Source of the DNA: Brachybacterium saurashtrense
GTDB taxonomy: Bacteria > Actinomycetota > Actinomycetes > Actinomycetales > Dermabacteraceae
Reading direction: 5' to 3'
Length of the DNA: 64,000 nt
Assembly (NCBI RefSeq): GCF_003355475.1
Contig: NZ_CP031356.1
Span: 1,860,001 to 1,924,000, forward strand
This document shows positions 30,590-32,073 of the stretch, in pieces. The notes under the pieces were generated by a model that saw nothing but the letters and a program-made list of their open reading frames with translations, was not told where the DNA came from and made no database searches. A program made the position numbers and the translations under genes. Position 1 is the stretch's first letter; every line of letters starts with the position of its first letter.

Positions 30590-30718
30590 CCGCGCGGAGA
30601 CGAGCCGGGGAAGGCCTGGAGGCACCTGCGGTCATCACGGGGGCTTTGGGCGGGCCATGGCTTAGAGTGCCGGGAAGGTCCCGCCCGGCGGGACGCCCCG
30701 AGCCCCGAGGAGACCACG

Positions 30719-30859
30719 GTGAGCTGCACCGAGCGCCCCGACATCCCCGACGACCACAAGCGGTTCTCCCTCGGCGAGGACTGGATCGCGACCCTGGTGG
30801 GGCTCGTGCTGTTCGGCGCGTGCATGGCCGGCCTGATCGCCCCGGAGCTGATCCCGTGA
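30719..30859 (+). CDS. 46-residue single-TM membrane peptide, coupled to YeiH
   Basis: GTG start with GAGGAG upstream, 46 codons, ending in TGA that overlaps the GTG of the next gene (GTGA). The sequence begins with a short acidic tail (SCTERPDIPDDHKRFSLGE) and has one membrane helix DWIATLVGLVLFGACMAGLI. The EDW-x-GLVL pattern looks like the first helix of longer YeiH/putative sulfate exporter proteins (~480-500 residues), so this may be that segment as a separate polypeptide. That relation is inference. It is too short for many gene finders. Confidence 0.75.
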   Translation: MSCTERPDIPDDHKRFSLGEDWIATLVGLVLFGACMAGLIAPELIP

Positions 30860-32073
30860 GCGCCGCGGAGCGCACCGGCGCCGCCGCGAGCGCCGCCGCC
30901 GGACACGGCACCGCCGCAGTGACCGGCACCGCAGAGGGGACCGGCACCGGCGACGGGACGGGCGGTGCCCCGTCCCCGCGGGCGGGGCTCGGGTGGACGG
31001 CGGCGGGCCTGGTGATCGTGGTGGGCCTCGCCGGGCTCGTCTCGGTGCTCACCGACCAGGTGCCGGCGCTCACCGAGGGCACCGGCTTCGGCAGGATCGC
31101 GAGGTCCATCGAGTACCCCGTGTACGCGATCGCCCTCGGCTTCGCCGCCAACGCCGTGCTCTCGGTGACCGGGGTGCGCCGGCGCATGGCCGCCGCGTTC
31201 CGCACCGAGCTGTTCATCAAGGTGGGCCTGGTGCTGCTGGGGGCGAGCGTGAACTTCGCCGTGGTGGTGCGGGCCGCCGGGCCCGCCGTGCTGCAGGCGG
31301 TGCTGCTGATCACCGTGGTGTTCGCGTTCACCTGGTGGTTCGCGGGCCTGCTCGGCGTGGACGACAGGCTCCGGGCGCTGCTCGCCTCGGCGCTGTCCAT
31401 CTGCGGCGTCTCCGCCGCCGTGGCCGCGGCGGGCGCGGTCGAGGCGAAGAAGGAGCAGCTGGCGTACACCGCCACCCTGGTGATCGTCTTCGCGGTGCCG
31501 GCGATCTTCCTGCTGCCGTGGCTGGCCGGCCTGATGGGCCTCTCCCCCGCCGTGACCGGAGCCTGGATCGGCGGCAACATCGACACCACCGCCGCGGTCA
31601 CCGCGGCCGGCGCGGTCGCCGGCGAGCAGCCGCTGCAGATCGCCTCGATCGTGAAGGTCACCCAGAACGCCCTGCTGGGCGTGGTCGCCGTGCTGCTCAC
31701 CCTCTACTTCTCCGTCAAGGTCGCGGGCGATGCCGCCGGGGGCGCGCGCCGGTTCGGCGACCGACGCTCGCTGGCGATGCTCTGGCAGCGCTTCCCGAAG
31801 TTCGTGCTCGGCTTCCTGCTCGCCTCGGTCGTGGCCACCGTGCTGGCGGAGTCGATGCCCGCCGCGCTGCTCGAGCCGCGCCAGGACGCGGCCAAGGAGC
31901 TGCAGGTCTGGGCGCTCACCCTCGCCTTCGTCTCGATCGGCCTGGAGTTCGACGCGGGCAGCATCAAGGAGGCGGGCTGGAAGCCGATCGCGGTGTTCGC
32001 CGCCGCCACCCTCGTGAACCTGGTGGTGGGCCTGGGACTCGCCGTGCTCCTCTTCCGCGGATTCACCTTCTGA
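30856..32073 (+). CDS. YeiH/UPF0324 putative sulfate exporter
   Basis: 405 residues with about ten or eleven membrane helices. Family blocks include YPVYAIALGFAANAVLSV, FIKVGLVLLGASVNF, LLASALSICGVSAAVAAAGAV, and GNIDTTAAVTAAGA. PF03601 proteins are called putative sulfate exporters, but the substrate is not established. The N-terminal ~45 residues are Ala/Gly/Thr-rich and unstructured. GTG start at 30856 overlaps the small membrane-peptide gene (GTGA), so translation is coupled and the two products are probably partners. Confidence 0.9.
   Translation: MSAAERTGAAASAAAGHGTAAVTGTAEGTGTGDGTGGAPSPRAGLGWTAAGLVIVVGLAGLVSVLTDQVPALTEGTGFGRIARSIEYPVYAIALGFAANAVLSVTGVRRRMAAAFRTELFIKVGLVLLGASVNFAVVVRAAGPAVLQAVLLITVVFAFTWWFAGLLGVDDRLRALLASALSICGVSAAVAAAGAVEAKKEQLAYTATLVIVFAVPAIFLLPWLAGLMGLSPAVTGAWIGGNIDTTAAVTAAGAVAGEQPLQIASIVKVTQNALLGVVAVLLTLYFSVKVAGDAAGGARRFGDRRSLAMLWQRFPKFVLGFLLASVVATVLAESMPAALLEPRQDAAKELQVWALTLAFVSIGLEFDAGSIKEAGWKPIAVFAAATLVNLVVGLGLAVLLFRGFTF

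What the first reader, a model, noticed from the sequence alone, without database searches (positions are those of the whole stretch)
30719..32073. Split YeiH: a 46-residue TM peptide overlapping the permease by GTGA
The peptide's helix resembles the first helix of long YeiH/putative sulfate exporter proteins, and its stop overlaps the YeiH start, so the stoichiometry of the two would be linked. A separate extra helix could be a regulatory or assembly subunit.
Basis: inference. Interest (0 to 1): 0.6.

Follow-up and report, generated by a model that had tools for sequence, protein, structure and literature searches.

The report
Detached helix subunit of YeiH transporter
A 46-residue one-helix membrane protein overlaps the gene of a YeiH-type (putative sulfite/sulfate exporter) transporter; the pair is conserved from actinobacteria to Chloroflexi and one betaproteobacterium, the helix is fused to the transporter in other bacteria, and so it is very probably an undescribed second subunit of this pump.

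Summary
ORF 30719-30859 (GTG start, 46 aa, one TM helix) ends inside the start of a 405-aa YeiH-like permease (30856-32073), overlapping by GTGA. It is a real gene. Thirteen of 14 congeneric orthologues keep it; an IS element cut the 14th. Their last Pro codon is CCG in 13/13, preserving the GTG start, while other invariant Pro codons vary. The peptide occurs upstream of this YeiH subfamily in about 27 named genera plus Chloroflexi and Solirubrobacteraceae MAGs. In 96/96 loci the two genes keep one frame relation, and 95/96 have a start codon overlapping the stop. In 38 congeneric genomes it occurs in 13, always beside this YeiH. Long YeiH proteins of Proteobacteria carry the same helix fused at their N-terminus (KEDWWA[IV]WLGL). 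The fused-helix profile picks out only the peptide among 11,734 ORFs (101/101 hits); canonical YeiH lacks it. Best explanation: a translationally coupled one-helix subunit of a YeiH-type anion exporter. Binding, substrate and regulatory versus structural role are untested. No Pfam or NCBIfam model covers it, and searches of an open-access library found no description.

The parts
30707..30712 (+). Shine-Dalgarno-like GAGGAG, 6 nt before the peptide's GTG
   Evidence: sequence; comparable purine-rich sites precede most homologous peptides
30719..30859 (+). 46-aa single-helix membrane peptide (proposed YeiH small subunit), motif RPDxPDDHKRFSLGEDWxATxxG; stop TGA 30857-30859
   Evidence: ORF; conserved in 13 congeneric orthologues and about 83 further loci; no Pfam/NCBIfam hit
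30785..30841 (+). predicted TM helix of the peptide (residues 23-41, IATLVGLVLFGACMAGLIA), directly after the conserved EDW; basic residues on the N-terminal side, so probably N-in
   Evidence: hydropathy and charge count
30844..30847 (+). GGAG inside the peptide's 3' end, 8 nt before the YeiH GTG: possible own ribosome site of YeiH
   Evidence: sequence only; inference
30856..30859 (+). GTGA overlap: stop of the peptide and start of YeiH
   Evidence: conserved 13/13 in genus, start codon overlapping the stop in 95/96 loci
30856..32073 (+). YeiH-like permease, 405 aa, PF03601 (E 1e-41); TIGR00698 hit below its cut-off (64.9 vs 232.6)
30997..31053 (+). YeiH's own first TM helix (residues 48-66); by order and context it corresponds to the third TM of the long fused YeiH, so fused forms have one extra helix between it and the EDW helix
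   Evidence: hydropathy
31096..31992 (+). PF03601 (Cons_hypoth698) core of the permease

Best explanation
The 46-aa peptide is a dedicated one-helix subunit of a divergent YeiH (putative sulfite/sulfate exporter) subfamily. SHOWN: it is a real, conserved protein-coding gene, always immediately upstream of this YeiH and overlapping its start; its helix is the counterpart of the N-terminal EDWWA helix that Proteobacteria (and a frame-shifted Bacteroidota copy) carry fused to YeiH; canonical YeiH proteins lack the helix. INFERRED: ribosomes that end the peptide at TGA restart at the overlapping GTG/ATG, so the two chains are made together in the same place; the peptide inserts N-in/C-out and packs against the transporter, probably at the scaffold side rather than in the substrate path, as the fused helix would, supporting assembly or activity. 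The permease probably works as an elevator-type secondary exporter of sulfite, sulfate or a related anion. Because the peptide's C-terminus should face out and YeiH's N-terminus in, the two could not simply be joined; the fused proteins have an extra TM helix between them that restores the topology.
For: Pair conserved with fixed frame and start overlap in 95/96 loci, two overlap types xTGA and TGATG/TAATG. Co-occurrence in the genus: 13 genomes with peptide, all with the YeiH orthologue, none of the genomes without it. Synonymous codon variation, with CCG fixed only at the overlap. Fused homologues and reciprocal profile hits. Tree: helix-bearing proteins, split or fused, lie apart from 26 canonical YeiH (SH-aLRT 91). 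Loss cases: IS cut (L006/L060) and a deletion that removes the peptide and the yeiH start together (L094). TM layout peptide + YeiH-TM1 versus TM1-TM2-TM3 in fused forms; K/R/H mean 2.69 before and 0.12 after the helix. Overlapping or near-touching pairs are enriched for heteromeric complexes, 30.4% vs 6.8% in E. coli (PMC10666635). YeiH needed for sulfite resistance in Salmonella (PMC12880088), proposed sulfite exporter elsewhere (PMC11582611). Some loci lie near SsuC- and MetNQ-like ABC genes; one fused gene near TauD, LLM oxidoreductases and epsC. Weak fold matches to CPA antiporters and CitS.
Against: No physical or expression data. One clean exception: Herbihabitans (L104) has the YeiH and no detectable peptide anywhere in its genome. 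Canonical YeiH works without the helix. Overlapping genes are common, and most such pairs in E. coli do not form complexes. In Brachybacterium the neighbours are not sulfur genes. Foldseek found nothing at E<=0.001. The fused/split similarity rests on about 24 columns of a TM helix.
Confidence: 0.77

Rival explanations
1. The peptide binds YeiH but is a regulator (an inhibitor or activity modulator in the manner of AcrZ), not a constitutive structural subunit.
For: Small one-helix proteins are known that modulate pumps (AcrZ-AcrB, PMC7267776); canonical YeiH lacks the helix; one genome has YeiH without the peptide.
Against: It is coupled in cis to YeiH in every split locus and fused permanently in other lineages, which fits a fixed-stoichiometry part better than a separately controlled regulator.
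Confidence: 0.15
2. The short ORF matters for its translation only: an upstream ORF that controls yeiH through termination-reinitiation, the peptide itself having no function.
For: Strict overlap of stop and start (95/96).
Against: Amino-acid sequence conserved across phyla with synonymous codon variation; homologous helix fused in frame in other YeiH.
Confidence: 0.05
3. The two ORFs are one protein joined by programmed -1 frameshifting at the overlap, or one gene broken by mutation.
For: All pairs have the same relative frame (96/96); fused homologues exist.
Against: The junction sequence differs between lineages (CCCGTGA, CCCTGATG, CTAGTG, TAATG) with no common slippery site, yet a start codon is nearly always kept; peptide and YeiH topologies would clash if joined directly (inference).
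Confidence: 0.03

Closest known systems
YeiH / putative sulfate exporter (PSE, TC 2.A.98, PF03601): E. coli/Salmonella YeiH, Paracoccus SuyZ
   Same: The 405-aa partner has the PF03601 domain (E 1e-41) and the same overall layout.
   Different: Below the TIGR00698 cut-off; belongs to a separate branch with an extra helix as its own gene; canonical YeiH has no such helix.
Long fused YeiH of Proteobacteria (annotated 'putative sulfate exporter family transporter', e.g. Sphingobium WP_270093998.1)
   Same: Same EDW helix at the N-terminus, followed by the same core.
   Different: One polypeptide; one additional TM helix between the EDW helix and the YeiH part.
Small accessory subunits of transporters (AcrZ of AcrB, KdpF, MetS of MetP)
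   Same: Short one-helix protein tied to one transporter; MetS and KdpF are co-encoded with it (recalled from general knowledge).
   Different: No detectable sequence relation (no NCBIfam or Pfam hit for the peptide); different transporter family; function here untested.

Membership tests
PF03601 / YeiH-type PSE family (partner protein) | PF03601 score above the gathering cut-off | tested here: met
   143.3 bits vs 24.5
TIGR00698 YeiH subfamily | score above the curated cut-off | tested here: not met
   64.9 bits vs 232.6: a divergent subfamily, not TIGR00698
PF03601 / YeiH-type PSE family (partner protein) | CPA/elevator-like fold reported for YeiH | tested here: inconclusive
   AF2 model pLDDT 79.6, pTM 0.77; best PDB hits are CPA antiporters and CitS (TM to 0.45), none at E<=0.001
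PF03601 / YeiH-type PSE family (partner protein) | exports sulfite or sulfate | not testable with these tools
   only indirect: literature on YeiH/SuyZ and sulfur genes near a minority of loci
EDW N-terminal helix of long YeiH | [KNSG]EDWxA + TM helix N-terminal to a YeiH core | tested here: met
   hhalign prob 95, E 3.7e-8 over 24 columns; reciprocal search 101/101 specific
Co-encoded one-helix transporter subunit | separate small ORF with one TM helix, in cis to one transporter family | tested here: met
Co-encoded one-helix transporter subunit | physical association with, or requirement by, the transporter | not testable with these tools
   needs bench work

The most novel reading that the evidence does not exclude
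A two-chain YeiH: a previously unrecognised family of one-helix subunits required by a widespread anion exporter subfamily, made in fixed ratio by stop-start overlap, with fused versions that needed a bridging helix to keep the topology.
Probability: 0.6. Interest if true: 0.6.

Novelty: new variant of a known kind. Interest (0 to 1): 0.52.

Why it matters
YeiH-type exporters protect bacteria from sulfite, yet their mechanism is unknown and the searches here found no relative of this protein with a solved structure. If the partner helix is needed, expression or knock-out of yeiH alone in actinobacteria would give misleading results, and the pair should be cloned together. The natural series canonical / split / fused makes the role of one helix in an elevator-type transporter directly testable. 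The peptide has no model in Pfam or NCBIfam, so it is likely to be listed as hypothetical or missed.

Tried and rejected
PDB sequence search with the YeiH profile: no hits. Pfam/NCBIfam on the peptides: only chance-level hits. Peptide search in 349 Pseudomonadota genomes: one true split pair (the query genome Pseudothauera), one fused form (L142), and one chance hit (L141). Weak class-level hits L051, L052, L053 and L055 rejected as chance: no YeiH nearby. Promoter/terminator scan: nothing (the sigma-70 consensus is a poor model for high-GC actinobacteria). Gene neighbourhood as a function clue: only a minority of loci have sulfur-related ABC genes, none in Brachybacterium, so it was not leaned on. 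Programmed frameshift considered and rejected (no common slippery site). An AF2 model of peptide plus YeiH as a pair was not attempted: no multimer mode. Paper searches for a small subunit of YeiH found nothing; the library holds open-access papers only.

Full report
What is there. The window lies in a 3.72-Mb single-contig genome; the congeneric loci are Brachybacterium. ORF 30719-30859 encodes MSCTERPDIPDDHKRFSLGEDWIATLVGLVLFGACMAGLIAPELIP; the YeiH-like ORF starts with the GTG at 30856, whose last two bases and the next A form the peptide's TGA. The YeiH frame is open upstream, so its start is not given by the ORF alone. It is fixed by comparison: all 13 intact congeneric pairs have the same CCCGTGA junction, and the last, invariant Pro codon is CCG in 13/13 while the two other invariant Pro columns are CCG in only 2/13 and 1/13. 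That third base is free for the peptide but needed for the GTG, so the overlap is under selection.

Is the peptide a gene. Eighteen of 46 residues are invariant in the genus, and invariant residues vary in their synonymous codons; pooled uncorrected pN/pS is 0.45. In 38 genomes of the genus the peptide is found in 13, all of which carry the YeiH orthologue; the only other genome with that orthologue (G028) has it cut by an inserted transposase gene.

How far it goes. A peptide HMM in 395 genomes of the class and a scan of GTDB contigs with the YeiH alignment gave 96 distinct pairs: Actinomycetota (Brevibacterium, Micromonospora, Pseudonocardia, Nocardia, Cellulomonas, Gulosibacter, Actinomyces and others; about 27 named genera over all loci), two Chloroflexi MAGs, a Solirubrobacteraceae MAG and the betaproteobacterium Pseudothauera. 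The peptide is always a separate ORF upstream. In 96/96 the frame relation is the same; in 95/96 a start codon overlaps the stop, as xTGA or as TGATG, TAATG or TAGTG. Where the last base is C and the first kind is impossible, the second is present in 37 of 38. Exceptions: L071 has the peptide but no start codon overlapping its stop; L006/L060 and L059 keep only a truncated YeiH (IS insertion shown for L006); L094 has a deletion that removes peptide and yeiH start together; L104 alone has YeiH and no peptide anywhere in its genome.

Fused forms. Long YeiH proteins from Caballeronia and Sphingobium plasmids and from Pseudomonadota genomes begin with KEDWWA[IV]WLGL and a TM helix. Profile-profile comparison with the peptides gives probability 95, E 3.7e-8 over 24 columns. 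The fused N-terminal HMM searched against 11,734 ORFs from the split loci gives 101 hits at E<1; every one is the peptide. In the long proteins the peptide HMM matches best at TM1, and canonical YeiH gives no match of note. PF03601 starts after this helix in the fused proteins, which is why it has no model. In a maximum-likelihood tree of cores, 26 canonical YeiH fall on one side and all helix-bearing proteins on the other (SH-aLRT 91), the latter including the split clade, the fused clade, a Hymenobacter gene with the fused layout but a frameshift, and a second split lineage from the actinomycete family f22. The tree is unrooted and has long branches, so fission versus fusion is open.

Topology. 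The peptide has one TM helix with basic residues almost only before it (mean K/R/H 2.69 before, 0.12 after, 84 peptides), suggesting N-in/C-out. Window YeiH has one TM helix before the core; fused YeiH has three. The fused form thus has exactly one more helix between the EDW helix and the YeiH part. Inference: without it the outward C-terminus of the peptide could not be joined to the inward N-terminus of YeiH.

Function. The literature ties YeiH to sulfite: needed for sulfite resistance in Salmonella, predicted Na+/H+-antiporter-like (PMC12880088), and proposed sulfite exporter in Paracoccus and Hyphomicrobium (PMC11582611). Here the AF2 model (pLDDT 79.6, pTM 0.77) has weak matches to CPA antiporters and CitS, none significant. 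A minority of loci are near SsuC- or MetN/MetQ-like ABC genes; a fused gene sits among TauD, LLM oxidoreductases, epsC and a ferredoxin/FAD pair. Sulfite or sulfate export is therefore plausible for this subfamily, not shown. Stop-start overlap allows local re-initiation and is enriched among complex subunits (30.4% vs 6.8% in E. coli; PMC10666635).

Verdict. The finding and its interpretation hold up: a conserved small protein, homologous to a fused helix, coupled to a YeiH-type exporter. It is best read as an undescribed one-helix subunit; binding and role need the bench.

Noticed in passing
L006 / L060 (same locus, FME24), upstream of YeiH: A transposase gene is inserted at about codon 57 of yeiH, removing the peptide and the YeiH N-terminus; the genome has no other peptide copy.
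   Followed up: yes
L094, about 2974-2990: Compared with its close relative L088, a roughly 200-bp deletion removes the peptide gene together with the start of yeiH.
   Followed up: yes
L143, 925-1500: Hymenobacter plasmid YeiH with the fused EDW helix is frame-shifted after the second TM region and carries no CDS annotation.
   Followed up: partly
L050 (- strand) and L054: A second, distant YeiH lineage also has an upstream EDW/VDW peptide; in L050 peptide and YeiH are in the same frame, separated only by TGA CCC before a GTG.
   Followed up: partly
G000:C1:1412210-1413097: The genome holds a second YeiH paralogue (35% identity); the peptide search found no peptide beside it.
   Followed up: partly
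G444:C13:50-154 (L136): A Chloroflexi MAG has a second, diverged copy of the peptide at a contig end.
   Followed up: no
window 30662-30668: TTAGAGT about 50 nt before the peptide start resembles an actinobacterial -10 box, which would make the peptide the first gene of its transcript; the sigma-70 scan did not call it.
   Followed up: no
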